Below are positions 6,596-60,116 of a stretch of DNA of 64,000 nucleotides, piece by piece; the first letter of the stretch is position 1; each line of letters begins with the position of its first letter. This DNA comes from a virus, in IMG/VR virus record IMGVR_UViG_3300021197_000993, positions 1 to 64,000 of that record. One strand, given 5' to 3'. A model generated the notes under the pieces. That model was given only the letters and a program-made list of their open reading frames with translations, did no database searches and was not told the DNA's origin. The position numbers and the translations under genes were made by a program.

Positions 6596-9018
6596 GGTAT
6601 CGGCCCTCCTAATGCGAAGAGTTGCGCCGCTAATCGTTGTATTGCTGTATCTAAATCGGCAGGGGGCGCGCCCACCCAATTACCCGCACCGGGACCGGGG
6701 TTGTATGGTTCAGCACCACCTTGTCCGGCTGGCAAAGCGGCGGCGGCCAAAACACCTTGAGCCGCAGTAGCATAGTCGGCGGAGTCAAATGCCTTGACTT
6801 GCGCGAGATTGGTCACTTCACTATCCATTAACGCTCCCGCGGCAGTGACATTGGCCGCATCGGTCACATCTGCACCGTCTTCAACATTGAGTAGGGTTAG
6901 CACTTCTGCTTTGGTGATACCCGAAGCAAACACAGGCGTTCCACTGTTATCTTCAATAGCGGGAGCCGCGCCACCACCACCGCCCGAAGCCGCGGCCCAT
7001 TTGACACCGGATGCCTCCGCGCTATCGGCTGTCAAGACATGGGTATTCGTTCCTACCGCCAAGCGCGTGAGAGTGTTGGCGGCGGTTGCTACGAAGATGT
7101 CGCCCTTGGCATTAACATCGGTTTCCATAACCGCACCAGCGGCGTTGACATTGGTAGCGTCAGTGACATCCGCGCCCGTTTCAATACCGTTCAACTTCGT
7201 GTGGTCAGTATCGGTGAACACATTGGAGTCAGTAGCCGCTTCAACAGCCGCGCGTATTTCAGCATTGGTTTGGTCTGCTGTCGCGCTTGCTTCAATACCG
7301 TCCAACTTAGTTTTGTCAGCACCCGACATAGAACCTGCCGCGCTTGTTGTAGCCGCGCTTATACCAATTGTCCCTGTGGTTGTTATTGTCCCTCCGGTGA
7401 TTGGTGCGGTTGTTGCTACACTCGTTATTGTTCCTGTGCTTGCACCTGCGGTGATACCGTCCAACTTAGTTTTGTCTCCGTTGGCGAATGCTCCTTCGGA
7501 TGGAGGTTGTTGCGCGCTGTCAGCCTTTGCGCCTTGTGCGGCTGTTGCGTAATCGGATGCGGCGAACGCCTTGACTTGAGCAAGGTTCGTGACTTCGCTG
7601 TCCATCAATGCTCCCGCGGCGGTGACATTTGCTGTGTCTGTCACATCTGCGTTGTCTTCAATGTTGAGAAGTGTTTGGACTTCTGCTTTGGTGATACCTG
7701 TGGTGAACGCTGGTGTCCCGCTGTTGTCGTAAATCGCGGCAATCGCACTTCCCGATATGATGGCCGATTGATAGTCGCATCGTATCCAAACACTTCCTTC
7801 GTAAATGAAGGTAGCGCGGTGAGTTGGCCCCACTGTTTCATTAGCACCACTCAAGTCATCAAAAATGATGTTCCCTAAGCCGTTGTTGCACACTTCAATG
7901 ATGTGTCCTTCGGGGAACTTGTAGTTGGTTCCGTCCTTTTCGGGTTGAAGTGTGATGTCAACACCTGCATTTGGCGCAAGCATGAAGAAAGAATCACCGT
8001 CCGATGTGATAACCCATGTGCCGTTTGTGGTTAGCGCGGTAGTGGTTGCGTCAACACCCATACCTTGCAGACGCACCGAGTAGTGTCCGGTCTGTTGATT
8101 GTTGCGCCCCGCGAAATAGAATGTGTCAGCGACATGCCCTGTTCCACGGTCTGCGCCGCGCGATGGTCCTTGACCATATCCGGGGTCGCTGGCTGACGGT
8201 GGCGTTTGAGCAAAGGAGCCGTAGCGCGGATGACTGACCCAATGCACATTGACTGTATCTGTGGTAGCGAGTTCACCGTTATCGTTGTGAATGGCGTTGA
8301 GGTGTGCTATGTTATTGATACCATGCGCGCCTGTATCAACAATTTCACCACTCGCGATTGCGGCAAGCGACAGCGGCACACGGTAATCGGCTGTGCTTTC
8401 TATGAATACACGCTTGTCATTGATTTCAACAATGTTGAGGTTGTTGCTCCCACCACCACTGGCTGTGTATTGAACACGGACATGCGCAAGCACAATGGCT
8501 TTGGCGTTATCACCCAACGAGAGTGACTTGTAGTTGATGAGATATTGGTTGGACGCGGATGGGTAAAGACCGGTCGTTGTATCTGCGGGGCTTCCACCTT
8601 CGTAGTGAACTTTGTTGTTGCCGCCACTTGGTGCGACATAGATAGTGTAGATGGCTTCTTGGTTGGCTGATAGGGCAAGCGCGCCACTACCATGTGAACC
8701 GCTGTTGAGGTCAAGCGTGATGGTGTTGCCAACACCACTCCCGAACTCATAAAGCGCGCCGTCAAGCACAAGGAAGCCACCACTTACAGTGAGCGTGCTT
8801 GAAGAAGCGCGCACCATTGAACCGGGTTGGTTGCCGCTGTTGGTTTCGTTGCGTGAAGAGTCAAAGGCCCCGTCTTGGTATCGGATGATTCCATTACCAT
8901 GCACACCTTGAATCAAGTTCGTTAATGTCGCAGGTGATAATGAATCCCCATCTCGTAGTCCGTCTTCACCAAGTGTGTTCTGCGCGGCTGTATGTCCCGC
9001 GATGTTATCAGTTGCCAT
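6592..9018 (-). CDS. tail fibre / receptor-binding protein with repeated stalk modules
   Basis: This is an 808-residue fibre-like protein. The first ~400 residues are rich in Gly, Ser, Thr and Asn in short beta-type segments (STLTVSGGFLVLDGALYEFG). The C-terminal half is built of Ala/Thr/Asp-rich modules such as KTKLDGI, TKAEVxTLLN, GADVTDAANV and SEVTNLAQVKAF, typical of trimeric fibre stalks in marine phages. One ~60-residue module occurs twice. There is no recognisable enzymatic domain. The start at ATG 9018 overlaps the end of the ADP-ribosyltransferase-like gene. Position at the end of the tail module supports a role in host recognition; the ligand is unknown. Confidence 0.75.
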   Translation of the reverse strand: MATDNIAGHTAAQNTLGEDGLRDGDSLSPATLTNLIQGVHGNGIIRYQDGAFDSSRNETNSGNQPGSMVRASSSTLTVSGGFLVLDGALYEFGSGVGNTITLDLNSGSHGSGALALSANQEAIYTIYVAPSGGNNKVHYEGGSPADTTTGLYPSASNQYLINYKSLSLGDNAKAIVLAHVRVQYTASGGGSNNLNIVEINDKRVFIESTADYRVPLSLAAIASGEIVDTGAHGINNIAHLNAIHNDNGELATTDTVNVHWVSHPRYGSFAQTPPSASDPGYGQGPSRGADRGTGHVADTFYFAGRNNQQTGHYSVRLQGMGVDATTTALTTNGTWVITSDGDSFFMLAPNAGVDITLQPEKDGTNYKFPEGHIIEVCNNGLGNIIFDDLSGANETVGPTHRATFIYEGSVWIRCDYQSAIISGSAIAAIYDNSGTPAFTTGITKAEVQTLLNIEDNADVTDTANVTAAGALMDSEVTNLAQVKAFAASDYATAAQGAKADSAQQPPSEGAFANGDKTKLDGITAGASTGTITSVATTAPITGGTITTTGTIGISAATTSAAGSMSGADKTKLDGIEASATADQTNAEIRAAVEAATDSNVFTDTDHTKLNGIETGADVTDATNVNAAGAVMETDVNAKGDIFVATAANTLTRLAVGTNTHVLTADSAEASGVKWAAASGGGGGAAPAIEDNSGTPVFASGITKAEVLTLLNVEDGADVTDAANVTAAGALMDSEVTNLAQVKAFDSADYATAAQGVLAAAALPAGQGGAEPYNPGPGAGNWVGAPPADLDTAIQRLAAQLFALGGPIP
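6767..6953 (-). repeat. fibre module repeat, copy 2
   Basis: This encodes the protein module running from DNSGTP through GITKAEVLTLLNVEDGADV to SEVTNLAQVKAFDSADYATA. It matches the copy at 7540-7733 closely in protein and substantially in DNA. It lies near the C-terminus of the fibre protein. Confidence 0.7.
7540..7733 (-). repeat. fibre module repeat, copy 1
   Basis: This encodes the same module as 6767-6953 (DNSGTP, then GITKAEVQTLLNIEDNADV, then SEVTNLAQVKAFAASDYATA). Differences between the copies are mostly at third codon positions and a few loop residues, which suggests an old duplication maintained as a stalk unit. Confidence 0.7.
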
Positions 9019-9364
9019 CGTCTTTCACCTCTTCAAATCTGTCTCTCAATACGGGCTTCCGCACAACGATGTGTCGTCCCCCACCTTTCATTTTTATTGG
9101 AGTTCCTTCTACATTTTGCACGCGCACCACACCGGGTCGCTCGTTTGGATTTGACTTAGACTGTGTTGCAAAACCGCGCGCCTCTTGTGGGTCGGTCGTG
9201 AAGAAGAGTCCGGGGCTTGGTGCTTGAGTGTTGTCGGGATAGCGCACGCGCCCTTTCGGTTGCAGTCCCTCTTGGTTGGCTTGATTCATGCGCGATGTGC
9301 CATGATACCACGGTCCTTCGGGTGCTTTGAGCAAACGCCATGCTTTCTCCATCGGACTCATCAT
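9008..9364 (-). CDS. small ADP-ribosyltransferase-like protein with N-terminal AWRLLK tag
   Basis: This is a 118-residue protein. Residues 5-14 are MEKAWRLLKA, the tag-like helix shared with other proteins here. Then comes YHGTS at 20-24 followed by a GLxP turn, and GLFFTTDPQEARGFA at about 52-66. The YHGTS...GLF pattern is that of small ADP-ribosyltransferase/Tpt1-like folds, where the His-Gly pair helps hold NAD. The C-terminal part (VVRVQNVEG, then HIVVRKPVL) would supply the remaining strands. No clear catalytic Glu can be assigned. The start at ATG 9364 has GGAGGTG just upstream and forms an ATGA overlap with the preceding gene. If the tag targets proteins to the virion, this could be an injected host-modifying enzyme, as T4 Alt is. 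Confidence 0.5.
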   Translation of the reverse strand: MMSPMEKAWRLLKAPEGPWYHGTSRMNQANQEGLQPKGRVRYPDNTQAPSPGLFFTTDPQEARGFATQSKSNPNERPGVVRVQNVEGTPIKMKGGGRHIVVRKPVLRDRFEEVKDDGN

Positions 9365-9711: not shown

Positions 9712-11378
9712 ATCTTCCTCCGTATTCGTCGTCCCTTCGTTGTTCGCATTTCATGTGCGCGCGGTCGGAGCATACGCACCTCCGCCGCTGAACCGGGTAT
9801 TGCGGCCCCACTTACCAAACTTACGCCTGTGAATGTAGTGGCTGTTTTTCCACTATACGATACGAGCGATTGGTCAGCGATGATGAGATGGCCGCTTGAG
9901 TCAAAACCATCGGTGCTGGCGACCGTGATAGCCCCTGCCGCATGTGTGCCGCTGATGCGCTTCGTGATACCGAAACCAAGAGCCGACCGTCCCGCGCCAT
10001 ATCCGCTGTTGCGGTGAGCCAAAAGGATGCCAGCGTGGATGTCCGAGCCTGTATTCAACGCGCTCGTTTTGGTTCTCGCCAACTTACCGATGACCGGTCG
10101 CACCAGTAATACACCGCGCACTTTCAACTGCGAACTACCAACACCACTCTTGTTTATGCTGACTACTTGCTGACTGCGGTCTGCTTCACCTTCTTCGTCA
10201 TCCATATCTGCGCTGTCTCCGAAGGCGTTGACCACGGCTTCAAGACCAGCCTCGTATGAAAGCATTTGAAAGTTTGAAGTCCCATCGGATTTGTGTTCTA
10301 ATTCAATAATACCTTGACGCACATCACCAGCAGGTGATTTGTAATTGACAACATCACCGGGTTCTATGTCCCACGATTGCGCGTGTAGATTTGATTGCAA
10401 CGCACCTTGTGCTTTTTTGTTAAGGCGAAGCATTTGATTTGCGCTACTTCGTGCCTTCGTTTCATTGTTGACCGTGGGGTCTTTGACTTTCATTTGCTTG
10501 ATTGAGCCTTGTCGCTTCTGCGCTTCTGCATCATCAACTTCAACGCTAATAGCATCGTTGAGTGCAATACCTGTTCCGCGCATTAGGATGCGATTAGCCA
10601 CATCAGTAATAGGGTCAACCTTCGTTTTACCGATTCCGCGCTGAACACCTAAATCTCGGTCTTTGATATTGAAAATCTTTGGCGCGTAGATGAAGTTCCC
10701 AAAGCGGTCGTAATACATGATGTAGTGGTCATGTCGCCCAAGGAAACGCACTGCTGTGGGTAAGACAGTAGAGTTGAAGTTTTGCGCGACAAAGAGCGTG
10801 CTGTTGCCTTTTGACTCAACGCTGTTCAATCCATGCAGTGCTTTCGTAAACAACTTTTCAACCAAATCTGTGCTACGCAAACCCACGCTTATTGTTTGTC
10901 CAGCGTAAACATGAGTCGTATCAACCATTTGAAAATCGGCCAAACTTCTACCCTTCATGTTGATAAGTTCAATTTGCGCGCCTTTGGATGCTGATGATAT
11001 GCCTTGCGTTCTCAATCGTAGAGTTGGGTCGCGAGTATCAATCAACAAAACAGGACGGTTTGATGTCGCGCTCATTTGTTGACCATCAAAGTAAGGAGCG
11101 TCTTCATGCGTCGTATGCGCTAATCTTACAGAAGATTGAGTCTCACTGATTCGGTAGCGACGCGGATGAGTTGGTTGAAAATCTGCTTGGTTTGGTTTGC
11201 TTACTTGTGTCTTTTTGCTGTTGTCTTGAACTGTTTCGTAAACAACATGGTGAACAGCATTGTCTACAAATGTCGGCTCTTCGGCGATGGCTCCGATTTC
11301 ATCGTGAAGTTCTTTTGCGCGTCCAAGACGCTGACCAACATAGGAAGCGTTTGCTGGCGTAGGGACGGCAAATGTCAT
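9708..11378 (-). CDS. tail hub / baseplate-type structural protein
   Basis: This is a 556-residue protein read directly after the giant tail gene. The middle (~residues 310-385) resembles the tail hub domain of phage gpD/gp27-like proteins: an Ala/Arg helix NQMLRLNKKAQGAL followed by WDIEPGDVVNYKSPAGD, which matches the 'xPGDVV' barrel signature of that family. The region before it (RFLGRHDHYIMYYDRFGNF) would form the preceding tail-hub domain. The C-terminal 100 residues are beta-rich and Gly/Ala-rich. The assignment rests on local motifs and gene order, not on a full alignment. It is coupled by ATGA to its neighbours on both sides. Confidence 0.6.
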   Translation of the reverse strand: MTFAVPTPANASYVGQRLGRAKELHDEIGAIAEEPTFVDNAVHHVVYETVQDNSKKTQVSKPNQADFQPTHPRRYRISETQSSVRLAHTTHEDAPYFDGQQMSATSNRPVLLIDTRDPTLRLRTQGISSASKGAQIELINMKGRSLADFQMVDTTHVYAGQTISVGLRSTDLVEKLFTKALHGLNSVESKGNSTLFVAQNFNSTVLPTAVRFLGRHDHYIMYYDRFGNFIYAPKIFNIKDRDLGVQRGIGKTKVDPITDVANRILMRGTGIALNDAISVEVDDAEAQKRQGSIKQMKVKDPTVNNETKARSSANQMLRLNKKAQGALQSNLHAQSWDIEPGDVVNYKSPAGDVRQGIIELEHKSDGTSNFQMLSYEAGLEAVVNAFGDSADMDDEEGEADRSQQVVSINKSGVGSSQLKVRGVLLVRPVIGKLARTKTSALNTGSDIHAGILLAHRNSGYGAGRSALGFGITKRISGTHAAGAITVASTDGFDSSGHLIIADQSLVSYSGKTATTFTGVSLVSGAAIPGSAAEVRMLRPRAHEMRTTKGRRIRRKI

Positions 11379-26740: not shown

Positions 26741-26741
26741 C

Positions 26742-30617: not shown

Positions 30618-30760
30618 GCGCCACACCCCATTTTCTCACAGGTTGAGCCTTCGGGTTTGCACTTTGGACATGTTTTGCAACCACGACAACCTTTACAGTC
30701 GTCGTCTTTGCACATACTTTCTTTCAACAGCGTTCCCCAACTTTCTCTAAACGGATTCAT
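30614..30760 (-). CDS. 48-residue Cys-rich protein with N-terminal SWGTLLK helix
   Basis: This was read directly from the gap between the tail tube and SAP genes. ATG 30760 follows AGGTGA at a five-base spacing, and the stop at 30614-30616 overlaps the next start as ATGA. It begins MNPFRESWGTLLKES, close to the AWxLLK tag of other proteins here. It then has eight Cys in 30 residues (CKDDDCKGCRGCKTCPKC and two more near the end), suggesting one or two bound metal ions. No family is known to me. Placement among tail genes is unusual for a metal-binding peptide. Confidence 0.7.
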   Translation of the reverse strand: MNPFRESWGTLLKESMCKDDDCKGCRGCKTCPKCKPEGSTCEKMGCGA

Positions 30761-34991: not shown

Positions 34992-35362
34992 CAGTCATCC
35001 CTCACTCGCAGTCTGTCAAGTCTTCGCACCATTTTTTTCCCGACTCCCTTTGGGTAATGTCCGTGTTGTTGGTAAAATTGTTCGGTCATGTTTCTTGCTT
35101 CTTTGAGTCTCCCACCCTCTTTTAGCATAACGCGTATGCGCTGACCTTGGTCTATTTTCGCTTGTTTAGCGTCAAGTTGTTGTTGATACGATTGAGCCTG
35201 TGGTGTCATTTTTGGAGCAGTGTCTTGGCCTTGTTGACGAACTTGTTGTTCTTGCGCTTGCATTTGACGCATTTGTTCAGCCGCGGCGCGGAAACCTTGA
35301 GCCTCCATTTCTTCGGGTGTCATCTTGAGCAACCGCCAAGCCGTCTCAAACGCATTCATCAA
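34991..35362 (-). CDS. small basic helical protein with N-terminal AWRLLK tag
   Basis: This is a 123-residue protein. It begins MMNAFETAWRLLKMTPEEM, with the AWRLLK core at exactly the same residue positions (8-13) as in the ADP-ribosyltransferase-like protein at 9008-9364, though the remainders are unrelated. The middle is Gln/Met/Ala-rich coiled-coil-like sequence, and the end is basic (KGVGKKMVRRLDRLRVRDD). It lies between zinc-ribbon and connector genes, coupled by ATGA and TGATG overlaps. Function is unknown; the tag suggests it belongs to the same targeting set as the others. Confidence 0.6.
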   Translation of the reverse strand: MMNAFETAWRLLKMTPEEMEAQGFRAAAEQMRQMQAQEQQVRQQGQDTAPKMTPQAQSYQQQLDAKQAKIDQGQRIRVMLKEGGRLKEARNMTEQFYQQHGHYPKGVGKKMVRRLDRLRVRDD

Positions 35363-36962: not shown

Positions 36963-38110
36963 TCATTGTAGGTCGCGAATGCTCCCGCTTGCGCCAAAGA
37001 ATGAACACCAAAGTTCACCCATTGTTCGGTAAAGCCCCTCTTGTCCAAGACGGTTAATCGCGAATGGGTCGCCAGTCTCAATACCGCTTTCGTAGTATTG
37101 GGTTGGGATTGCGGTTTGGAACCACAAGTAGTCAGTGTCCAAGTAGTAGATACGCGACAGACTACCTGCGCCTTCGTCGGGCATATCCTTGGTTGGAATC
37201 ATTGGGACACCGTTGTAGGTTGCGACGATGAACCCAGCCTCAAGACCGGGGACACCCTTCACACCGTTGAAGGTAGGAGTCACGCGCTTGCTGTCCATGA
37301 ATCGCTGTTGCGATTGGAGCAATTGCTGAACGCGCATCAAAGTGTCGTAGCCCGTAAGCATAACCTTCGGGTTGCCACCACGAGTCCAAAGTTGCTGGAA
37401 CAATCCGTCCATTTGGTTGAGGGACAGGTTGCGGTTCGCGCTGGTAGCGTCAACATCAACTTCTGCGCTGTGGAAAGCGGCAGAACCATCGCGAGTGATG
37501 GAATACATGTCGTGCTTGGTCAGCGAAGTGGTGATGTGGTTGGTTCCCGTCGTCATCTTGTCCGGGTCGGAAGTGATTCGGTCAAGTGATTCAAAGTCGT
37601 TGCCAGCGGTTGTGTCAACATCCTCAAGAAGCATACGGTTGATGTGTTCTGCGTGGTGCTTACCCATTTCTTCTTTGAGAACGGTTCGCACATCGCCAAG
37701 TCCGTCGTCCTTGTCGGAAAGGAACATGCTCACTTCGGACAGGTCAAAAGTGTGCGCGACAGTCTTTGGCTTTGCGGCCACATGTAGGAACTCCGGCTTG
37801 GTGGTGTCGGGAAGAACGCCGTTCTCCGCGATACCGCCACCCTTGGTGAAGGATGCGCGCTCCGTGAGGATTCGCCATCCACTTCGTTCCCAAGGCTTCT
37901 TTGGTAGAATTGAAAATGCATTGAACTCTTGGTTCAACTGCGACCATACTTTGCGACCGTAGATTGCTTGGTATGTTCCTGCGGTAGTGGACAACAAAGG
38001 CGCGTCAGCCTTCAAAATGTCTCCGCTTCCGTAGGTGTATCCTGTTTGAGAAGCACCACCGTAGTAGTATCGCTCCATGTCTTGCACTGTTCTTACATAA
38101 TCTCTTGCCA

Positions 38111-38111
<1 letters not shown>
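36963..38111 (-). CDS. major capsid protein (HK97 fold)
   Basis: This is a 382-residue protein directly after the protease-scaffold gene. It contains an N-arm, an E-loop-like segment (RSGWRILTERASFTKGGGIA), a spine-helix region (LSDKDDGLGDVRTVLKEEMG and HHAEHINRMLLEDV), and the P/A-domain pattern PKVMLTGYDTLMRVQQLLQ with VPMIPTKDMP. It ends in a typical YYLDTDYLWF and MGELWCSFFG. No delta domain is attached; scaffolding is supplied by the protease gene. It overlaps that gene by one base (TGATG). Confidence 0.85.
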
Positions 38112-39555
<1,444 letters not shown>

Positions 39556-39559
<4 letters not shown>

Positions 39560-46648: not shown

Positions 46649-48499
46649 CTATTGGAAACCACTGTCTTTCTGTTTAGCAGTTGGGTCTTTCGCGGCTTGA
46701 ACGCTATCAAGAGCCTGTTCAATAGGTGTTTTCTTTGCACCGCGTTGATTCTTTTTGCTTGAAGGCGCGCCGGATTGTTGTGTCTCCGAACTGATTGGTG
46801 CAGGGCCGCGGTCGCGCTGACCTGTGCCTTCACCAAGACCGATTGCCTTCTCCATCATCATAATTTGACCGCCTCCCTGCGGAGGAGGTCCTCCACCGCC
46901 CGGAGGAAGCCCACCGCCGGGCGGCATCATTGGACCCCCACCCTGTGGAGGTATGCCGCCCCCCGGCGGCATAGGTGGAGGCATACCGCCACCCGGAGGC
47001 ATACCGCCACCCGGTGGCATTCCGCCCATCGCGCCGCCACCCTGTTGTTGCATAGCGGCTTCTTGTGGGTCGGGTTTTGTGTAAGTGAATCGTATGTCGC
47101 TACCGCCGTCTTCTGTTAATTCGGGTTGGAACCCAAGTGCTTGCATACGCTGTGCGATGTTGACTTCTTGTTCGTCGCGTCGCAGTCGCGTAATTTCGTC
47201 TTCTTCTTCATTTGGATAGAGTGTGAGCATCCAGTCATGAACACCCATTTGGTCAAGCAAGCGGGGGAATAACTCGCGTGAATACAACTTCTGCCCCGAT
47301 TCAACAGCACGATTCGTGACAAGGATTTGCATTCCTTCGTTGTTCAATCCACCGGACTTACCACTATCCATCATGAAAACATTGGATACGCCATAGAAAG
47401 CCGCTATACGCATTCGTATTTCATCACGGACTTGCGCGTATTGCATTTCATCAAGACTATCCATGAAGCGAACAAACTCAACTTTACCGCGTCCCGACGC
47501 TGATTCAACGCCGACTTTAGGAATGTAGTGGGGGTCGCGCTCCATTTTTTCTTCTGCTCCTTTCCAAAACGAAGCGGTAGATTGAATGTTATCAGTGGTG
47601 ATAGCGAGAACACCACGAGGGATACGACGCTTTTGATACGCGAGGTAAATGTAATTGTCCATAGCAGTGAGTGATTGCGCTTGTCGCCACATGCTGGCGA
47701 CAGGTGAGCGGCCATACAATTTTGACGGATTGAACTTGGAGATGTGCAACACTTCACCGTCAATGTAGTATTGCGTCTTTCCGCTACCGGCAGTGTTGAT
47801 GTAGTGAACATCTTGAAGAGGTAAGCCACAATTGTGAACTTCACACTTTTTGTGGTCGCCGTTGTGGGGGTAGGTTTTGTCGCGGTGGACAGGACACAGA
47901 AGGTATCGTCCTCCGCGCTTACCTGCTTTATCAGCAACAATACGCATGAATGTTGGGTCGCCACGAACCAATTCTTTGACGCGGAAAAACTCTATTTTGC
48001 CGTCTTGAGGGTCAATGAAATACTCTTTGATAAGCAACAAAAACGCGTCATCAACGATGTCCAAGTCCCATTCAATCTCCTTCATCACTTCAATAAATGA
48101 CTGGTCCATAGTGTTGCGTTGTTTCATCAACCATCGCGGGTATAGGATTTGGTCAGCATCGGGGCTTTCAAACTTTTTATTGCCGCAAATACGACACGAG
48201 TCAATCGTGTCATGCTGGTATTCTTCTTCACAGTTGGTGCATTTCTTGTGAAACTTCTTCTCCCAATAATAGCCGCGACGAAAAATCTCTTGACATAGTG
48301 TGTTGATAGTCGTTCGGAGGATGATGGATTCTTGCACTGTTGCATAAAGAGCAGGTATGGATACACCTTGAACGAGAACAGGTTCTTGAATACCCGTTTT
48401 CCAAAGCGGCATCTGCGGTTCGGGGGTTGTTCTACGGCTAAATGGTTTGGTCAACGAAGACAAAAAACGCCCTACTATTCCTTTTTCTTCGGCCATCAT
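46649..48499 (-). CDS. portal protein with two zinc-binding insertions
   Basis: This is a 616-residue portal, the dodecameric ring through which DNA enters the head. Family features include a clip/stem region (YGRSPVASMWRQAQSLTAMD, then IYLAYQKRRIPRGVLAI) and the crown-side helix AQVRDEIRMRIAAFYGVSN. Two inserts carry metal-binding patterns: C87/C90 with C102/C105 (CTNC, then CRIC), and CPVH at 202-205 with a second Cys/His set near 219-224. These are unusual in portals. Residues ~490-560 are a Met/Pro/Gly repeat (MPPGGG units), then a basic end. ATG 48499 overlaps the previous stop as ATGA. Confidence 0.82.
   Translation of the reverse strand: MMAEEKGIVGRFLSSLTKPFSRRTTPEPQMPLWKTGIQEPVLVQGVSIPALYATVQESIILRTTINTLCQEIFRRGYYWEKKFHKKCTNCEEEYQHDTIDSCRICGNKKFESPDADQILYPRWLMKQRNTMDQSFIEVMKEIEWDLDIVDDAFLLLIKEYFIDPQDGKIEFFRVKELVRGDPTFMRIVADKAGKRGGRYLLCPVHRDKTYPHNGDHKKCEVHNCGLPLQDVHYINTAGSGKTQYYIDGEVLHISKFNPSKLYGRSPVASMWRQAQSLTAMDNYIYLAYQKRRIPRGVLAITTDNIQSTASFWKGAEEKMERDPHYIPKVGVESASGRGKVEFVRFMDSLDEMQYAQVRDEIRMRIAAFYGVSNVFMMDSGKSGGLNNEGMQILVTNRAVESGQKLYSRELFPRLLDQMGVHDWMLTLYPNEEEDEITRLRRDEQEVNIAQRMQALGFQPELTEDGGSDIRFTYTKPDPQEAAMQQQGGGAMGGMPPGGGMPPGGGMPPPMPPGGGIPPQGGGPMMPPGGGLPPGGGGPPPQGGGQIMMMEKAIGLGEGTGQRDRGPAPISSETQQSGAPSSKKNQRGAKKTPIEQALDSVQAAKDPTAKQKDSGFQ
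46860..47045 (-). repeat. MPPGGG-type repeat tract in the portal gene
   Basis: G- and C-rich tandem units coding Met-Pro-Pro-Gly-Gly-Gly and variants. The tract is clearly distinct in composition from its surroundings. It likely forms a flexible linker at the portal C-terminus, facing the head interior. Confidence 0.75.
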
Positions 48500-49878: not shown

Positions 49879-50020
49879 CGCGATTCACCTTTCTCTCATT
49901 CCAAGCCATTATTTGCGGACTACCGTTTTTCTCCCAACACTTTTTACAAAATCCAAAAGGATATACCTTATCTGTTGTGTAGCAACAAGTGTGATAGTGA
50001 TACTCAACAGATTGGGTCAT
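49868..50020 (-). CDS. 50-residue Cys/His zinc-binding-type protein
   Basis: This was read directly from the gap. ATG 50020 overlaps the preceding TAA (TAATG), and the stop lies within the next gene's ribosome-binding region. The product contains YHYHTCCYTTDKV, then FGFCKKCWEKNG and MAWNERKVNRVEN. Two Cys plus His upstream and CKKC downstream suggest one zinc site. It belongs to the run of small Cys-containing genes between terminase and portal. Family unknown. Confidence 0.6.
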   Translation of the reverse strand: MTQSVEYHYHTCCYTTDKVYPFGFCKKCWEKNGSPQIMAWNERKVNRVEN

Positions 50021-50433
50021 TAACAATTCCACCTTTTCAACGCCGCGCCTTTCGGAGTCATCTTACCACCTTTGCTGGTTGGACCTTTAACGCCACTCAT
50101 TCGCGCGCAAAAAGACTTTCTACGCTTGGCTTTTTTACCGCCCGGTTTTAGTTTGCTTGGTTTTGTCGTGACCGGAGGTTTGAGGTTTGCACCACTCTTT
50201 CGCTTTGCCGCGGCGCGACCTTTCGCGTTCAGTCCACCTTTGCGACTGTGTTTGTTTGGATTGTATCCGTGAAACGGCTTGCTCTTTTTCTTCGCTTTCA
50301 ACACCGTGTTTGCAATGTCAAACGGTGAGCAACATGTGCAAAACGACACCTCTTTCGCGATGTCGTCGTCGTTCATCATTGCTAATTCTTCTGCTGTTAT
50401 TGGTTCATGCATTATGTATTCGTATTCTGTCAT
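50020..50433 (-). CDS. conserved basic viral protein (DUF6321-like)
   Basis: This is a 137-residue protein. The C-terminal 80 residues, SRKGGLNAKGRAAAKRKSG, then KRRKSFCARMSGVKGP, then PKGAALKRWNC, match from memory a domain found in many marine phages (DUF6321-type) whose function is unknown. It is strongly basic with Cys at fixed points. The N-terminal ~55 residues are acidic with a CTCC pair and then PFDIANTVLKAKKKSKPFHG, which loosely resembles the AWxLLK...KK tag. It may be a DNA-binding head protein. It lies with four other tiny genes between terminase and portal. Confidence 0.65.
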   Translation of the reverse strand: MTEYEYIMHEPITAEELAMMNDDDIAKEVSFCTCCSPFDIANTVLKAKKKSKPFHGYNPNKHSRKGGLNAKGRAAAKRKSGANLKPPVTTKPSKLKPGGKKAKRRKSFCARMSGVKGPTSKGGKMTPKGAALKRWNC

Positions 50434-50434: not shown

Positions 50435-50890
50435 TTATCCCCTCGTCAAATGATGATACCCGCATACGCATGGGTATGTTGAAATCGGTCGTCCCGATTG
50501 GCGCGATTGATAGTCTCTATCGCGTTCCGCATGTGCGGGTGATTCGTATTTGTTCTTCTCCGGAGTAGGGCATGGTGGATAATTACCGCGACCCTTCATG
50601 AACACCCACGCCTCGTCCATCCCTTTAACGATGGTGGGCTTTCCGCCTACGCCCTGTTTCTTGCTACGCTTGCGTTTCGTTGCCGCGCGCTTTTGACCTG
50701 CTGACATAGAACCGCTGGTCTTCGGAGTCTTGCTTGATACCTTGACGGAGGGGCGACACTTGGGGTATCCTTTGCTACCCTTCTTTGCCTTAGAACGCCC
50801 ACAGGGAGGATGCTTACCATCCTTACCTGTGCGCGAAACATCAACCCACTTTTCCTTGAACCAACGATTCAAGTTTTTCTCAACCGTCAT
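50435..50890 (-). CDS. conserved basic/Cys protein (DUF5872-like) with internal AWVFMK motif
   Basis: This is a 151-residue protein with its start fixed at ATG 50890 by an ATGA overlap. The N-terminal ~75 residues (NRWFKEKWVDVSR, then PPCGRSKAKKGSKGYPKCRP, then MSAGQKRAATKRKR) match from memory a family widespread in viruses (DUF5872-like). Residues 91-99, MDEAWVFMK, are the shared tag, here internal as if it began a second fused unit. The end carries PPCPTPEKNKYESP and STYPCVCGYHHLTRG, a Cys/His metal-site pattern. Function is unknown; a basic, metal-stabilised virion protein is plausible. Confidence 0.65.
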   Translation of the reverse strand: MTVEKNLNRWFKEKWVDVSRTGKDGKHPPCGRSKAKKGSKGYPKCRPSVKVSSKTPKTSGSMSAGQKRAATKRKRSKKQGVGGKPTIVKGMDEAWVFMKGRGNYPPCPTPEKNKYESPAHAERDRDYQSRQSGRPISTYPCVCGYHHLTRG

Positions 50891-51090
50891 TTTCCAGCCC
50901 ACGCATCACAAATATATTCTTTGTTGCAAGTAAAATCATACCACTTGCAGTAGCCCGTTTGAGGGTCTTCTGTTGCTGAATCGTCCCACGCCTTGCAGTT
51001 GCCACACTTCTTCGGACCTGTGGCCTTGCGATAATTCGGCGCGTCTTTCTTGGCTTTCATCAAAGCCCACGCTTCTTCAAGAGGAATCAT
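50887..51090 (-). CDS. 67-residue Cys protein with N-terminal AWALMK tag
   Basis: ATG 51090 follows GGGAGG and overlaps the previous stop as ATGA. The protein opens MIPLEEAWALMKAKKDAPNY, the clearest N-terminal copy of the tag. The stretch EEAWALMKAKKDAP aligns with DDAFEMIRKKKDAP in the protein at 56192-57463. The rest, CGNCKAWDD, GYCKWYDFTCN and YICDAWAGK, has five Cys in a pattern like small high-potential iron-sulfur-type proteins reported in phages, and could also bind zinc. Its job is unknown. Confidence 0.65.
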   Translation of the reverse strand: MIPLEEAWALMKAKKDAPNYRKATGPKKCGNCKAWDDSATEDPQTGYCKWYDFTCNKEYICDAWAGK

Positions 51091-51307: not shown

Positions 51308-52708
51308 TCAATCTAACAACCCCTCCATTATTTCATCCAAGTCCACAATGCGCTCACGGAACTCCGTGGTGGCCCAATGAGCCAACGCGAGAGCAATAGC
51401 AAAGTCATCGTGCCTACCAATACTGTCAAGCCGACCTTTCTTGCTCATACCAAACATAAGCAACTCTCGTTCAAGTTCCGACATCATCGTTCGTGAACGG
51501 TCATCACCCCACGGCAATCGCATCTGCTCATTTTCAAAGCGCAACACCAAACCCATGAGAAGAGACTCACGGCGTTGGCGTGTGGAGATGAATGTTTTGA
51601 TAGGGAGGTCTGTATCTGCGCGTAGTTCAGTAGCGAACACACGCTGAAAGTTGTTGGCTTCAAGTTCAATAACATCGGGATTAAACTTCGCGTTGAGTCT
51701 TTGAATCTCCATTATCTGTGTTCGGAAGTCCATATTCTTGCGACGAACCGCGTGAACCAATTCAAGCAGTTCGGGGTTGGTTGATGGGCGACGAAGCACC
51801 ACCATGACAGTATAGTCAGCCGCGCGGTCCGAAGAAATAGCAGGGTCCCAACCGATGAAGTATTGGTCATCGGGGTCGCCTACTTCGCGTTCAATCAGTT
51901 TGAGTGTGTTGTCTTTTGCGGCTTGCAGAATGGTTGAAGGGAACAAACTGCTCACATCGTCCATTGGTTCGCACAAGTATTCACGAGCAAATGCGATGGC
52001 TGGCATATCATTGCGACGCGCATCAAGAGAATCTAAATCCCAACGCTCCGGCCAAAGAGCCTCACCTTTGGCGTTGATAGCAGGGTAGGTTTCAACGAGA
52101 TAACCCTCCCTACTCTCCAACTCCGTGTAAAGGTCAGTTGGTGTAAACGGTGTCCCGACAATCATCAATTTGGATGTGTGGTGAAGTGTAGGAACAAGAA
52201 CCTCGTAGAACCATGAAGCAACGCGAGCGAGTTCAGTATCAGTCGTTCCCCACAGAATGTCGTCGCAAAGGATGAGGTCGGGGTGAATACCACGGATAGC
52301 ACCACCAACTGACTTCGCGCTAATGTTGGAGCCGTTGCTAAAACCGAAGAATGTCTTTGACCAAGAATCTGCTTTCTTCATTTTCGCGAGGAACGGCACT
52401 CCATCAATCAAGTCATTGAGTGTGCGCATGTGGTGAATGGACTGATGAAGACTGTGTGAAATTAACACGGCTTTGGTCTTTGGGTTAAACGCTGTTTTCC
52501 ACAGCATGTAGCCAAGAAAGAGCGTTGATTTACCGTGGTCGCGAGCCGCTTTGACACAATATCGTTTGCGTTTTTCAAGGTTGTTATACCAGTCTTCGTG
52601 ATGATGTGATAATTGAAAACCGAGTATCTCTTCAAAAAAGAATCTAAAATCGCGCTTCGCTACCTCAAAGTCAATCTCTTCAATTGCTTCAAGTGATAGG
52701 GATTGCAC
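51308..52708 (-). CDS. terL: terminase large subunit
   Basis: This is the DNA-packaging motor. The ATPase half has Walker A AARDHGKST at 54-62, Walker B LILCDDI at 145-151 and coupling motif VGTPFTPTD near 184-192. The nuclease half has the RNase H-like acidic residues D288 (FIGWDPAISSD), E350 (VIELEANNF) and D434 or D435 (GRHDDFAIAL). At 466 residues it is complete. It starts with GTG at 52708, preceded by GGTGATGAAGT, the same leader as the 2002-residue gene. It is read just after the unknown gene at 52715 and before the small Cys-protein cluster. A headful or cos mechanism cannot be told apart here. Confidence 0.93.
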   Translation of the reverse strand: MQSLSLEAIEEIDFEVAKRDFRFFFEEILGFQLSHHHEDWYNNLEKRKRYCVKAARDHGKSTLFLGYMLWKTAFNPKTKAVLISHSLHQSIHHMRTLNDLIDGVPFLAKMKKADSWSKTFFGFSNGSNISAKSVGGAIRGIHPDLILCDDILWGTTDTELARVASWFYEVLVPTLHHTSKLMIVGTPFTPTDLYTELESREGYLVETYPAINAKGEALWPERWDLDSLDARRNDMPAIAFAREYLCEPMDDVSSLFPSTILQAAKDNTLKLIEREVGDPDDQYFIGWDPAISSDRAADYTVMVVLRRPSTNPELLELVHAVRRKNMDFRTQIMEIQRLNAKFNPDVIELEANNFQRVFATELRADTDLPIKTFISTRQRRESLLMGLVLRFENEQMRLPWGDDRSRTMMSELERELLMFGMSKKGRLDSIGRHDDFAIALALAHWATTEFRERIVDLDEIMEGLLD

Positions 52709-52714
52709 ACTTCA

Positions 52715-54391
52715 TCACCGAATCTTGAACCCCTTCAACAGTGAATCCCACGCCGCTTGGTGCTTATCCGAGGACATTTTGAACGCACCACCTTCGGACA
52801 TACCGCCCTCGTCGTCTTCTTGTTCGGTTGGTTCACCAAAGTTCAATTTCATACCCTTGGTTTTTTCTTCTGCGATGTCTTTTGCTCCTTCTGTATCACC
52901 AGCGGCAATAGCCTGTTGAAATCGCGGGTCGGCTTGAAGCGTTTGCATGAAATACTTTCCTTGTCGCGATTTGGGGTTAAGACCAAAACCGTCAAGCATT
53001 TCTTGTGTAATTTTCATCGCGGTGTCGGCAGGGTCAAAACCTGCATCCATCATGCGCTGTGCTAATCCCGATTGGCTACCTTTTTCTCCAATCGTGCGCT
53101 GGCCGTAATACTGTCCTTTTTCGCGACCCTCTTTGGATGTAAGGTAATCGCGGATTCGGCCAAGTTGTCCGCCATCGGCTTCGGTCGCCATAGCGGTTTC
53201 TCCACCACCGCCTTCCATAGCCATTCTCTTGCGCTTGTTTTCTTGCACTTTGTCAAACAACTTAGCCGCTTCATCCGCTTTTGAAGGTGTTGGTGCGGCT
53301 GGTTCAGCCGGTGCTTCGGGTTCAACCGGTGTCGGTGGCCCCGCTTGAGGAGCCGGTGGTTCTTCGGTTGCTGGTGGTGTTCCAAAGTTCAAATCTATAC
53401 CAGTCGGTCCGGGGTCTGTGTCAGTGAGCGCACTTTCTTCTTGCTCCTGTGTCCCCGGTTGCATCTCTTCTAAGGATTCTTCTTCTTCTACGGCTGGCTC
53501 TTCTTCTGCACCACGCATCATGTCGGGTCGGAATGCTACACCCGCGTCTTGCGCTCGCTTTCTGTCGCGCATTTGTCGTGCGCGGTCAAATCGCCCTTGC
53601 ATCGGCTTTTTCGCACCCGCTGTTATGTCAGCAATTTGTCTGTCTATTGCTTGTTGCGTTGTCAATTGATTACCTTCTTCATCATCCATAGGGTCAATGT
53701 TAAAGTCTCGCGCTAATCGTCGGTTTTGCTCACCTTCAAACGCAAGCATGTTTTCATCATAACCTTGGCTACCGGGGACATAACGCCTCATGGCTTGTTG
53801 TCGTCGTTGTTCGGTATCAGCGAGCGCGCCTTCAAGACGAGTGCGTCGCGCCGCTTGGTTGTCACGCTCGGATGATGCTCGGCGATAATCGCGGAACGCG
53901 CCGGGTAGTTGTCGTGCCGTCGCGAATCTGTCCTTCATGCGTTGACGCACTCCGGGTTTAATGAGGCCACCAAGTGAAGCGACATTCCGGAGAGCCGTTC
54001 CAGCGGCCATCATAGGTTGACCACTCACAGCATAATCTCGCATTTGCCCGCGATAGGGTTGACCAGTAGCCTGTGCTTCGGACAACCGCTGTCCAGCACC
54101 TATACCCTGTAAGTTTTGAGAAAAGTTTTGTCCACCACCTTGTGCCATCAACTGGTCATTGGTGAAGTTTTGGCTAAACGCAGGTTGTTTCCGAATGATG
54201 TCGGGGTGTGAATTATCGCGTTCCGCGATTGCTTTGATAAGCGGTTCCCAAGTGTTATCCTCAACGCCAAAAAACACATAATTGATGTCGCTAAGGTTGC
54301 CCCCTTTATTGATAATGAACTCAACAGTTCCGTCTTCTTTACCATGCTTAAGCATGCTGTCGTTCCATTCAATCTCCCAATTATCAACCAT
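52715..54391 (-). CDS. 558-residue disordered protein ending in the AWxxLLK motif
   Basis: The start at ATG 54391 overlaps the preceding gene's end by eight bases; the longer frame to 54529 is antisense-like extension. The N-terminal ~70 residues form a compact beta/alpha domain (VDNWEIEWNDSMLKHGKEDG, then SDINYVFFGVEDNTWEPLIK). The rest is Arg/Gln-rich, then Pro/Glu/Ala-rich and probably disordered. Near the end, YFMQTLQADPRFQQAIAAGD may be a helical segment. The last 15 residues, KHQAAWDSLLKGFKIR, are the shared tag at the C-terminus. Its place before terL suggests a packaging or inner-virion role. The family is unknown. Confidence 0.55.
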   Translation of the reverse strand: MVDNWEIEWNDSMLKHGKEDGTVEFIINKGGNLSDINYVFFGVEDNTWEPLIKAIAERDNSHPDIIRKQPAFSQNFTNDQLMAQGGGQNFSQNLQGIGAGQRLSEAQATGQPYRGQMRDYAVSGQPMMAAGTALRNVASLGGLIKPGVRQRMKDRFATARQLPGAFRDYRRASSERDNQAARRTRLEGALADTEQRRQQAMRRYVPGSQGYDENMLAFEGEQNRRLARDFNIDPMDDEEGNQLTTQQAIDRQIADITAGAKKPMQGRFDRARQMRDRKRAQDAGVAFRPDMMRGAEEEPAVEEEESLEEMQPGTQEQEESALTDTDPGPTGIDLNFGTPPATEEPPAPQAGPPTPVEPEAPAEPAAPTPSKADEAAKLFDKVQENKRKRMAMEGGGGETAMATEADGGQLGRIRDYLTSKEGREKGQYYGQRTIGEKGSQSGLAQRMMDAGFDPADTAMKITQEMLDGFGLNPKSRQGKYFMQTLQADPRFQQAIAAGDTEGAKDIAEEKTKGMKLNFGEPTEQEDDEGGMSEGGAFKMSSDKHQAAWDSLLKGFKIR

Positions 54392-56195: not shown

Positions 56196-57463
56196 TGTCC
56201 ACCTCTTCGCACATACAAGTCATACGGATGCGCGCCCCAGCGTGTCGCGTCATCATCGGGGTCAGTCTCCGTCGCACCCGTTGGAGCGGATGTCAAACCA
56301 CCCGACGCGTTATCACTTGGTCCTTCACTCGCACCTTGCATGGATTTGTCTTCTTTCCGCATCATGCGTCGCAACAAATGATTGAGTTGGTCTATTAGTT
56401 GACGATATTCAATTTTATCGCGTGGTGAAATGCGATTGGTAATTTTAACACGCTGTGCGCGCGCTTTCAAGAACTCCTCGGATGCAAGAATAGCGTCGGA
56501 TGCACCTATGCCACCAGCACCGCCAGTAAGCGATGTTGCTTCGGACATAATTTTACCACCCGGTGTTTTTGCTGTGCGTGGTTGGCGCATTGCTTTACCG
56601 TGTGGTCGTGAATCACGAGAACCGCGAATTGCTTTCGGTATTCGCGCCTTCGGAGTCACTGTGGGAATAGGTGGTGTAAGGTCTTGTGTGGGTTGACTTT
56701 GACGCTGTTGTTGTCGCATAGCCTCCGCTTCACGCTGTCTTGGGTCGGAGTAAGATTGTTTTGCTCGTGAACGACCACTCGCACCACCAACTCGGATGGG
56801 TGCTGTTCGTTGTCGGTAGGTGTATCCCGCACCAAACGAAGCATACGGAGCGCGAGCGGCACTCATACTTGCCATGTATTGCGGTTGGCGTATGTTCCCC
56901 GCTTTGAGACGGACACCGCTACCCTTTTTTCTTCGCTTACGCTTGATTGATTCGGTGGTGACATTTTTACGCGCTTTCCGTTTTTTACCAGTTTTGGCGC
57001 GTTCACGAGCGCGAATTGTTTGAATTGTAGTCGTTTTCTGCGGTTTATCGGTATCAAACTTCGGCGCATCTTTTTTCTTACGAATCATTTCAAATGCATC
57101 GTCAATGAATGGAGCGGTGGAGAGCATCATGTTCATACCCATACCGCTTGCGCGTGGGTTTGCACCAGCGTTGGCTTCACTTTGTCCGACTTGTCCTGTG
57201 AGTTGACTCAATTCAGCCTGTTGTTTCACTTGACTGTCCTCTTCGTCATCGGGGTCTTTTTGCGGTATTTTGACTTTCATGTGTTGCAATCCTTGCAACT
57301 TATGTGCGCGCTGTTCTTGTTCTTCACGCTTCTTCGCATCATCTCGTGCGCGCTCATCGGAATCTTCGCGACCGACAGTTGAATCGCCCTGCAACTCTTC
57401 TGCGCTCTCGCGAGGGTTGAAACGCATACCTGCTGTTCCGCCTTCGGGTCCACCAACCATCAT
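56192..57463 (-). CDS. 423-residue basic protein with internal AFEMIRKKKDAP motif
   Basis: The protein begins acidic and Glu/Arg-rich (probable coiled coil, ~20-90). It then has PFIDDAFEMIRKKKDAPKFD at 119-138, the tag-like segment that best matches the 67-residue protein at 50887-51090. A strongly basic stretch follows (RERAKTGKKRKARKN, then KRKRRKKGSG), then Arg/Gln-rich low complexity, then a short helical part (REIxYRQLIDQLNHLLRRMM type) near the end. It likely binds nucleic acid or packs inside the virion. It is coupled by ATGA to the probable small terminase. No family identified. Confidence 0.55.
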   Translation of the reverse strand: MMVGGPEGGTAGMRFNPRESAEELQGDSTVGREDSDERARDDAKKREEQEQRAHKLQGLQHMKVKIPQKDPDDEEDSQVKQQAELSQLTGQVGQSEANAGANPRASGMGMNMMLSTAPFIDDAFEMIRKKKDAPKFDTDKPQKTTTIQTIRARERAKTGKKRKARKNVTTESIKRKRRKKGSGVRLKAGNIRQPQYMASMSAARAPYASFGAGYTYRQRTAPIRVGGASGRSRAKQSYSDPRQREAEAMRQQQRQSQPTQDLTPPIPTVTPKARIPKAIRGSRDSRPHGKAMRQPRTAKTPGGKIMSEATSLTGGAGGIGASDAILASEEFLKARAQRVKITNRISPRDKIEYRQLIDQLNHLLRRMMRKEDKSMQGASEGPSDNASGGLTSAPTGATETDPDDDATRWGAHPYDLYVRRGGH

Positions 57464-58128: not shown

Positions 58129-58165
58129 AGGAAAGTCCAAGTAGCCGTAGCAAAAGAGCGTTTCT

Positions 58166-58648: not shown

Positions 58649-58649
58649 T

Positions 58650-59222: not shown

Positions 59223-59231
59223 AATACCACC

Positions 59232-60116
59232 TCACGCGCTACCCTCATTTTGTTGTTGCGGTAGAGGGAGAGGCGCACTTTGTTGCTGTAATTGGTGCAT
59301 CGCGAGTGCGTCATGAAGCAATTTTGTGTTGTTCCCTGCTTGAAATTGACGCATATCAAAGACAATCATAACCAAATCGTTCATTCCTGTTGCGGAATTG
59401 GTAAAATGAGTGATAGGGATGTTGTCTTGTTTCAACATCGCGAAGAATTGTTCGTATTTTGCAAGTATTGGCGGTGTGTTATCTCTCTTTTTGATGCTAT
59501 TTACAGGAACAGCAACAACAGAAACACCCTTTTTCAACTTGGCTTTCAGTGTTCCTCCACTCGCTTCTTGCTCCGCTTCTTCTTCTCTTTCCCATTTACA
59601 AAGCAAATGATAGAGGTGTAGGTGTTCGGGACAGTATGTTCCGCGCATTTTGCGTCCGCTGGTCACATTTTCTCGCGCTACGAAGGCTTCAACCTCTCCT
59701 GTGACCGGATTTTTGAAGTAAATGTCCCATAATGACTGTCCAGTTTCCTCATCAATGATTTGTTCGTAGATATTACCAGCCATCCGCAATAAATGTTCAA
59801 CATCTGCACCGTCAATGACACAACGCATGGTATTGGTGTTATAGCGGTATTTTCCCCCGAATAACCACCTTCGCGGAGAGAACATGCTTCTTTTTGTCGG
59901 TTTTAAGAGGCGATATGCCTGTTTTATGTCCTTTCTTCGCGCTTTTTTGGGGTTTGGGTGCTGTGAAGGGTAGAAGTTGACCTGCGGAACCTCAATATGT
60001 TCACTCACATTGCTCATTGCGGCTTGCGCGGATGCCTGTTGTTGCATCTGTGCAAGGCTCATTTGGGTCTGTGCGGCAAGCCTAAGTAGGTCATTTTGGG
60101 GTTTATTTCCGAGCAT
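59232..60116 (-). CDS. 294-residue protein in the GTPase module with an AYRLLK motif
   Basis: The first ~40 residues are a Gln/Ala-rich helix (QTQMSLAQMQQQASAQAAMS). Residues 64-72, IKQAYRLLK, resemble the shared tag and are followed by a basic region (PTKRSMFSPRRW). The centre (~95-180) looks like a folded domain (MRCVIDGADVEHLLRMAGNI, then YCPEHLHLYHLLCKW) with Cys and His that could bind a metal. The C-terminal ~90 residues are alpha/beta (ILAKYEQFFAMLKQDNIPIT, then DLVMIVFDMRQFQAG) and then Gln/Pro-rich. It lies directly downstream of the GTPase, so a partner role is possible. Family unknown. Confidence 0.5.
   Translation of the reverse strand: MLGNKPQNDLLRLAAQTQMSLAQMQQQASAQAAMSNVSEHIEVPQVNFYPSQHPNPKKARRKDIKQAYRLLKPTKRSMFSPRRWLFGGKYRYNTNTMRCVIDGADVEHLLRMAGNIYEQIIDEETGQSLWDIYFKNPVTGEVEAFVARENVTSGRKMRGTYCPEHLHLYHLLCKWEREEEAEQEASGGTLKAKLKKGVSVVAVPVNSIKKRDNTPPILAKYEQFFAMLKQDNIPITHFTNSATGMNDLVMIVFDMRQFQAGNNTKLLHDALAMHQLQQQSAPLPLPQQQNEGSA

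What the first reader, a model, noticed from the sequence alone, without database searches (positions are those of the whole stretch)
9008..60116. A short [E/D]xAWxLLK helix is shared by at least eight otherwise unrelated proteins
The motif is N-terminal in 9008-9364 (MEKAWRLLKA), 34991-35362 (FETAWRLLKM), 50887-51090 (LEEAWALMKAKKDAP) and, slightly altered, 30614-30760 (RESWGTLLKE). It is internal in 4807-6240 (MDAAWALLKANPD), 50435-50890 (MDEAWVFMK), 56192-57463 (DDAFEMIRKKKDAP) and 59232-60116 (IKQAYRLLK), and C-terminal in 52715-54391 (QAAWDSLLKGF). In two proteins it starts at the same residue although the rest is unrelated. Several carriers look like cargo (an ADP-ribosyltransferase-like enzyme, Cys/basic peptides). 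T4 internal proteins carry a short N-terminal capsid-targeting helix, so an analogous targeting or docking signal, possibly cut by the prohead protease, is a reasonable hypothesis.
Basis: partly seen in the sequence, partly recalled or inferred. Interest (0 to 1): 0.85.

Follow-up and report, generated by a model that had tools for sequence, protein, structure and literature searches.

The report
Cargo tag of marine archaeal viruses
Viruses of abundant ocean archaea put one short helical tag on a large and changing set of late-made proteins, most likely to load them into the virus particle, as phage T4 does with an unrelated tag; this points to a delivery system that nobody appears to have described.

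Summary
The window belongs to a 68.8-kb magrovirus (virus of Poseidoniales archaea). AWx[LFM][LMI]K occurs 5 times in its proteins against 0.016 in shuffles. In 160 relatives' loci fetched by capsid or terminase genes alone, the full motif occurs 181 times, all on those genes' strand, never in reversed proteins. It is a 12-residue tag: M-x-[P/A]-[MFIL]-[DEN]-x-A-W-x-L-L-K at N-termini, [GS]-EPMD-[LI]-A-[WMF]-[RQ]-LLK between domains. It precedes about 137 sequence-distinct modules (acetyltransferase-like, ADP-ribosyltransferase-like, HExxH, ParB-like, zinc-binding), up to eight times per protein. Carriers lie in the virion-morphogenesis cluster, almost never in the replication cluster. The late regions of haloviruses HVTV-1 and HCTV-1 lack it. 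Best explanation: a cargo-loading tag for the virion, working like T4's capsid-targeting sequence but unrelated in sequence. Destination and cleavage are inferred, not shown.

The parts
9326..9361 (-). N-terminal tag (M)MSPMEKAWRLLK of 9008-9364, in front of an ADP-ribosyltransferase-like module (WYHGTS...GLFFT)
   Evidence: 40 bits; no Pfam, PHROG or convincing PDB match for the module, so its identity is by motif only
35324..35359 (-). N-terminal tag MNAFETAWRLLK of 34991-35359
   Evidence: 35 bits; in 12 relatives (30-65% identity) the invariant columns are M1 A7 W8 L11 K12 and two Gly; AlphaFold2 model has a helix at residues 3-12, then a break
51055..51090 (-). N-terminal tag MIPLEEAWALMK of 50887-51090, in front of a Cys-rich module
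   Evidence: 28 bits; site covered in 22 relatives
50594..50629 (-). Inter-domain tag VKGMDEAWVFMK in 50435-50890, between a DUF5872 domain and a Cys-rich domain
   Evidence: 21 bits; DUF5872 match; 35 relatives cover the site
5272..5307 (-). Inter-domain tag TNVMDAAWALLK in 4807-6240
   Evidence: 28 bits; in relatives the following module has the tag at its N-terminus, MNPMNDAWTLLKGN
3997..4032 (-).
   Evidence: 27 bits; weak GNAT match in Pfam
30725..30760 (-). Variant N-terminal tag MNPFRESWGTLLK of 30614-30760, in front of a Cys-rich module
   Evidence: 5 bits because of one inserted residue; the same module follows a normal tag in relative G004
52736..52771 (-). C-terminal variant SDKHQAAWDSLL(KG) of 52715-54391
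   Evidence: [A/S]WDSLLKGL kept in orthologues of about 30% identity; does not match the matrix
57080..57115 (-). Divergent site APFIDDAFEMIR(KK) in 56192-57463, possible tag relic
   Evidence: kept in 49 relatives; same gene position holds SEPMDDAWSTLLK-type proteins in other magroviruses
50296..50331 (-). Degenerate tag CSPFDIANTVLK in 50020-50433
   Evidence: 9.9 bits; the same basic module (KKSKPFHGYNP) follows a normal tag, MSAFDEAWDLLEKG, in relative G026
36963..38111 (-). Major capsid protein, HK97 fold; marks the late cluster
   Evidence: PHROG major head protein E=1.7e-56; 33-34% identical to HVTV-1 and HCTV-1
38111..39559 (-). Prohead protease (S78) with a long C-terminal part; candidate processing enzyme
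   Evidence: Pfam Peptidase_S78 E=1.7e-9
46649..48499 (-). Portal protein
   Evidence: Phage_portal E=4e-9, just below the curated cut-off
51308..52708 (-). Terminase large subunit, inferred; anchor used to fetch relatives
   Evidence: sequence, gene order next to portal and capsid, 179 viral relatives; name by inference
2200..3699 (+). Group II chaperonin, a magrovirus hallmark, on the opposite (replication) strand
   Evidence: read from the sequence; present in relatives on the strand opposite to the capsid gene

Best explanation
The motif is a portable 12-residue docking tag that magroviruses add to proteins made late in infection so that these are loaded into the assembling virion, most likely the prohead, and delivered to the next host cell. 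It works like the capsid-targeting sequence of phage T4 internal proteins but is unrelated in sequence. The tag forms a short amphipathic helix (residues 3-12) with one hydrophobic face, [M/F/I/L]4, A7, W8, L11, for docking, and ends in L-L-K. Separate cargo proteins carry it at the N-terminus. Cargo proteins fused into strings carry one copy in front of each module. Shown: the tag, its portability, its restriction to the late gene cluster, selection at the protein level, and modular strings. Inferred: the helix binds a capsid, scaffold or core protein; the carriers are inside virions; the S78 protease cuts at or near the tag (L-L-K followed by a small residue, or [T/A/K/R] followed by [G/S]EPMD); the released modules act on the host.
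For: Enrichment: 5 against 0.016 in the window, 119 against 1.55 in relatives; 143 against 1.85 with 0 in reversed proteins in 28 contigs. Unbiased loci: 181 hits on the capsid/terminase strand, 0 on the other, 0 reversed. Gene map: tags sit in a cargo block at the start of the late cluster and in gaps between head and tail genes; the few opposite-strand carriers lie among other carriers. Portability: about 137 module clusters behind a tag; strings with up to 8 tags, median spacing 161 residues. The KRHK-type domain occurs in cyanophages and Flavobacterium phages with matches that begin after the tag, and with or without the tag inside magroviruses. Protein-level selection: codons at the tag are about as varied as elsewhere, 212 distinct 18-mers of 242. 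N-terminal position: Ala at residue 7 or 8 in 96 of 120 N-terminal cases. Helix 3-12 then a break in the model of 34991. T4 IPIII needs only its first 10 residues, with targeting at residues 4 and 7 (PMC9026906), and P1 DarB has an N-terminal capsid signal (PMC9024508). Cargo types (GNAT, ADP-ribosyltransferase-like, HExxH, ParB-like, basic and Cys-rich proteins) fit injected proteins.
Against: No magrovirus has been grown, so no virion proteome exists. The binding partner is unknown. Tagged genes also lie among tail genes, so a non-capsid destination is possible. The T4 cut consensus [L/I]xE is absent. The proposed LLK cut resembles conserved sites in the capsid protein and protease, but those may be structural. 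Most enzyme assignments of the cargo rest on weak or motif-level matches.
Confidence: 0.57

Rival explanations
1. A docking helix for another late complex. The tag recruits its carriers to something other than the capsid interior, such as the tail tip, an assembly site in the cell, or a host protein targeted late in infection.
For: Tagged genes also occur between tail genes; nothing links the tag directly to a head protein.
Against: The main cargo block adjoins terminase and portal genes. Enzyme-like cargo made only late makes most sense if carried to the next cell (inference from T4 and P1).
Confidence: 0.2
2. Mainly a processing signal. The helix and its flanks are the recognition site of the S78 protease, which cuts strings into modules; targeting is secondary or absent.
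For: One tag per module in strings; a more constrained [T/A/K/R][G/S]EPMD flank only in internal tags; [I/L][L/I]K followed by a small residue recurs at conserved sites in the capsid protein and protease.
Against: More than 100 tags are already at the N-terminus, starting at a fixed distance from Met, where a cut would only remove the tag. A 12-residue amphipathic helix with near-invariant Trp is more than a cut site needs.
Confidence: 0.13
3. Shared descent or a DNA element. The carriers are paralogues with a slowly evolving N-terminus, or the coding DNA serves as a recombination site for shuffling modules.
For: Internal tags share a rather uniform GEPMD[L/I]A form, so copies have probably spread by module duplication; one Leu codon (CTC) is overused at the tag.
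Against: Modules behind the tag differ (137 clusters) and include a domain with untagged homologues in unrelated phages. Codons are nearly as diverse as elsewhere, so selection acts on the protein.
Confidence: 0.06
4. Chance or composition. Lys-, Leu- and Ala-rich helices give the pattern by accident.
For: One of the nine listed sites (59232) does look accidental.
Against: 0 hits in reversed proteins and 283 in real ones at 9 bits or more; 0 in the late regions of HVTV-1 and HCTV-1.
Confidence: 0.01

Closest known systems
Capsid-targeting sequence (CTS) of phage T4 internal proteins IPI, IPII, IPIII
   Same: Short N-terminal peptide (10 residues) on several unrelated late proteins that vary between relatives; residues 4 and 7 matter for targeting (PMC9026906).
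   Different: Unrelated sequence; no [L/I]xE cut site; the magrovirus tag is also used between and behind domains, up to eight times per protein, on far more cargo types; capsid entry not shown here.
N-terminal capsid signal of phage P1 DarB (Dar system)
   Same: The first 30 residues suffice to send a foreign protein into the head; the cargo protects DNA in the next host (PMC9024508).
   Different: Known for one 250-kDa protein; no tag shared across many proteins is described there; sequence relation not tested.
Ejection proteins of giant phages (SPN3US type)
   Same: Many different proteins are packed into the head, some processed by the prohead protease (abstracts).
   Different: No repeated portable tag in strings known to me.
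Encapsulin cargo-loading peptides and bacterial microcompartment encapsulation peptides
   Same: Short portable peptides or amphipathic helices at a terminus or beside a linker that load unrelated cargo into a protein shell (own knowledge).
   Different: Cellular compartments, not virions; no sequence relation known; encapsulin peptides are mostly C-terminal.
Structural modules of Druskaviridae (HVTV-1, HCTV-1)
   Same: Closest isolated relatives by capsid protein (33-34% identity); same order of terminase, portal, protease and capsid genes.
   Different: No tag in their late regions.

Membership tests
T4-type capsid-targeting sequence | Short N-terminal peptide shared by otherwise unrelated late proteins | tested here: met
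   120 N-terminal tags, Ala at residue 7 or 8 in 96; 137 module clusters
T4-type capsid-targeting sequence | Sequence similarity to the T4 CTS and a gp21-type [L/I]xE cut site at its end | tested here: not met
   Tag ends in L-L-K; no [L/I]xE at that place in the position counts
T4-type capsid-targeting sequence | Necessary and sufficient for entry into the prohead | not testable with these tools
   Needs a cultured virus or recombinant procapsids
T4-type capsid-targeting sequence | Removed by the prohead protease | not testable with these tools
   An S78 protease is encoded; candidate sites are only suggestive
Encapsulin or microcompartment cargo peptide | Portable short helix on unrelated cargo | tested here: met
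Encapsulin or microcompartment cargo peptide | Part of a cellular compartment operon with a shell protein | tested here: not met
   Carriers lie in viral contigs with terminase, portal, capsid and tail genes
Magrovirales (viruses of Poseidoniales) | HK97-type virion genes and chaperonin, with replication and morphogenesis genes in two opposed clusters | tested here: met
   description in PMC10768690
Magrovirales (viruses of Poseidoniales) | Host is a Poseidoniales archaeon | not tested
   Host taken from the literature on relatives

The most novel reading that the evidence does not exclude
Magroviruses run a general cargo platform: interchangeable effector modules are strung together with one tag each, the strings are taken into the prohead by the tags, the maturation protease cuts them there into single proteins, and many different effectors are injected with the genome.
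Probability: 0.3. Interest if true: 0.93.

Novelty: new variant of a known kind. Interest (0 to 1): 0.83.

Why it matters
Magroviruses are among the most abundant ocean viruses, yet none has been cultured and most of their late genes have no assigned function. The tag marks, from sequence alone, which of those genes probably belong to one cargo set, so hundreds of unknown proteins become a defined list of candidate injected effectors of archaeal hosts. If confirmed it would be, as far as I know, the first capsid-targeting-like signal in an archaeal virus, and a natural example of tagged modules strung together, which could serve as a loading system for HK97-type shells.

Tried and rejected
(1) AlphaFold2 of 9008-9364 alone gave pLDDT 35: unusable, so the ADP-ribosyltransferase label rests on the YHGTS-type motif; phmmer against PDB sequences gave nothing convincing. 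(2) The 2002-aa protein site KAAWLLKEE and the 59232 site were examined and dropped because orthologues do not keep the tag residues. (3) Cleavage-site reading: both LLK followed by a small residue and [T/A/K/R] followed by [G/S]EPMD were considered; neither is decisive. (4) PHROG 9713 (23 positions) matched a tag in two carriers, but a genome search with that profile found nothing significant; left open. (5) PADLOC found no defence-system proteins among carriers. (6) DNA-level repeat or recombination-site explanation: disfavoured by codon diversity. (7) A cellular origin: the DNA pattern gives 45 scattered hits in 257 Gb of prokaryote genomes, not concentrated in one group. (8) The main magrovirus discovery paper (PMC5434244) is not held; the magrovirus paper read, PMC10160649, has no occurrence of 'N-terminal' or 'motif'.
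Full report
WHAT THE WINDOW IS. The window is 64 kb of a 68.8-kb IMG/VR virus record. Its late strand (-) encodes an HK97-type major capsid protein (36963-38111; PHROG major head protein E=1.7e-56; 33-34% identical to the haloviruses HVTV-1 and HCTV-1), an S78 prohead protease (38111-39559) and a portal (46649-48499), and, by gene order and relatives, a terminase large subunit (51308-52708). The opposite strand has a group II chaperonin (2200-3699). This is the layout described for magroviruses, viruses of Poseidoniales archaea, with replication and morphogenesis genes in two opposed clusters (PMC10768690).

IS THE MOTIF REAL. With simple gene calls of my own, AW.[LFM][LMI]K occurs 5 times in the window's proteins; 500 shuffles give a mean of 0.016 and reversed proteins give 0. 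In the window plus 161 further loci (nearly all relatives fetched by capsid or terminase genes) it occurs 119 times against 1.55. I then took 28 whole or partial magrovirus contigs (2.0 Mb, 2042 called proteins): [AS]W.[LFMI][LMI]K occurs 143 times against 1.85 in shuffles, and 0 times in reversed proteins. Positions before AW, not used for picking hits, turned out strongly conserved (P/A at position 3, M/F/I/L at 4, D/E/N at 5). A 14-column matrix finds 270 sites in 198 proteins at 10 bits or more, none in reversed proteins. Because some of the 28 contigs were chosen through tag hits, the fair control is the 160 loci fetched by capsid or terminase alone: 181 hits at 14 bits or more, all on the strand of those genes, none in reversed proteins; 85 of 116 loci of 10 kb or more have at least one.

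TWO FORMS. N-terminal form: M-x-[P/A]-[MFIL]-[D/E/N]-x-A-W-x-[L/V/I]-L-K, with Ala at residue 7 in 73 and residue 8 in 23 of 120 cases. Internal form: [G/S]-E-P-M-D-[L/I]-A-[W/M/F]-[R/Q]-L-L-K, often preceded by T, A, K or R; its first residue falls where the initiator Met of the N-terminal form falls. A few tags end proteins, e.g. GDPMDLAWRLLKNG at a C-terminus.

IT IS PORTABLE. Cutting the carriers at their tags gives 302 modules in 161 BLAST clusters, 137 of which occur directly behind a tag; 39 of these are in two or more genomes. The clusters are by sequence at E 1e-3, so some may be distant relatives of each other. 37 proteins have two or more tags, at most eight (L322:1-3618, 1205 aa), with a median spacing of 161 residues, and the tag falls between visibly different modules. 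The domain that begins SPEAKRHKLEYD is instructive: in cyanophages and Flavobacterium phages its matches begin at query residues 14-38, always behind the 12-residue tag, and within magroviruses it is found with an N-terminal tag, an internal tag, or none. Codons at the tag are about as varied as in the rest of the genes (212 distinct 18-mers of 242), so selection is on the protein and not on a DNA repeat.

WHERE IT OCCURS. On contigs with a capsid gene, 125 hits are on the capsid strand and 5 on the other; those few opposite-strand genes lie among other carriers. Tags form a block at the start of the late cluster, upstream of terminase and portal, and fill gaps between head and tail genes; the replication cluster is nearly free of them (one carrier each in G042 at 87 kb and G019 at 51 kb). 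Three DNA patterns of the tag hit 37, 33 and 55 stretches in IMG/VR. Of the hit contigs examined, nearly all carry a magrovirus hallmark gene (capsid, 60121-type GTPase, chaperonin or tail gene). The exceptions are G018, an 11-kb fragment in which the genes tried gave no match, and four fragments without a capsid match that were not tested further but share identical tag sequences with tested contigs (G047, G049, G051, G052). The capsid proteins of these viruses range down to 62% identity. The late regions of HVTV-1 and HCTV-1 have none, and a similar pattern gives only 45 scattered hits in 257 Gb of prokaryote genomes.

Five of nine are canonical (9008, 34991, 50887, 50435, 4807). 30614 is a variant with one inserted residue whose Cys-rich module follows a normal tag in a relative. 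52715 (C-terminal [A/S]WDSLLKG) and 56192 (DDAFEMIRKK) are conserved in orthologues but diverge from the tag. 59232 fails. For 34991, aligned with 12 relatives at 30-65% identity, the only invariant columns are M1, A7, W8, L11, K12 and two Gly; AlphaFold2 on that alignment gives a helix at residues 3-12 followed by a break (mean pLDDT 79, about 75 in the tag).

WHAT IT CARRIES. Sequence libraries say little: DUF5872 (5 of 106 carriers), GNAT (2), DnaJ-type zinc finger, SLOG, ParB-like, and single matches to other families. By motif I add several HExxH modules, more GNAT-like and ParB-like modules, and a few with a YHGT or FHGT sequence as in ADP-ribosyltransferases. Many others are short, basic or Cys-rich. 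These labels are leads, not tests.

MECHANISM. A short helix, fixed to the N-terminus or to module starts, with one hydrophobic face and kept while the cargo changes, is the anatomy of a docking tag. Late-only expression of enzyme-like cargo suggests that it travels in the virion to the next cell, as T4 internal proteins and P1 Dar proteins do. In T4, the first 10 residues of IPIII suffice, with residues 4 and 7 for targeting and 8 and 10 for processing; the magrovirus tag has its face at 4, 7, 8 and 11 and ends in L-L-K, followed by A, N, G or S in about 60% of N-terminal cases. The virus encodes an S78 protease, and [I/L][L/I]K followed by a small residue is conserved near the capsid protein's N-terminus and at places in the protease. 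That is suggestive of a common cut site but could be structural. I put 57% on cargo loading into the virion, 20% on docking to some other late complex, 13% on a mainly proteolytic signal.

NOVELTY. The kind, a capsid-targeting peptide, is known from T4 and P1. This one is unrelated in sequence to the T4 one, appears confined to magroviruses, and differs in its scale, its inter-domain use and its strings. I found no description of it in the papers on magroviruses that could be searched, but the principal discovery paper was not available.

Noticed in passing
window 38111-39559 (C-terminus) and 45923-46276: A second shared helix: NMSWDDVHRLAGKALK at the end of the protease/scaffold protein and EMSWDEIHAMADTAAQ near the end of a 117-aa protein. 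It could be a scaffold docking motif.
   Followed up: no
window 11375-26764: A single open frame of 5129 codons between tail genes, with relatives in most of the magrovirus contigs examined; probably a giant tail or adhesion protein.
   Followed up: no
window 48496-49878: A 460-aa protein between portal and terminase whose C-terminal half has a LAGLIDADG-like stretch (AAGFLDADGYI), so perhaps a homing-endonuclease domain in a head gene.
   Followed up: no
window 60121-60879: GTPase-like protein (GPTQVGKTT, NKAD) that lies directly downstream of the cargo block in most magroviruses; a good marker gene of unknown role in the late cluster. In six contigs the match is read through one stop codon.
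   Followed up: partly
window 46649-48499: The portal has a four-Cys zinc-ribbon-like insert (CTNCEEEYQHDTIDSCRICGNKKF) near its N-terminus.
   Followed up: no
L322:1-3618: PHROG 9713, a 23-position family of unknown function, matches the tag itself (residues 1189-1198, E=1.1e-5), so a fragment of the tag may already sit unnamed in that database.
   Followed up: partly
window 36963-38111: The magrovirus capsid protein lacks the roughly 75-residue N-terminal extension of the HVTV-1-type capsid profile, so scaffolding is probably done by separate proteins.
   Followed up: partly
L340:14910-16499, G014:19352-21001 (L214/L215), window 56192-57463: A protein encoded between the 59232 and 54384 genes carries up to three [S/G]EP[M/I][D/E]DAWS[T/S/N]L[L/M/I]K repeats with one extra residue in some magroviruses; it could be a core or hub protein of the same docking system.
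   Followed up: partly
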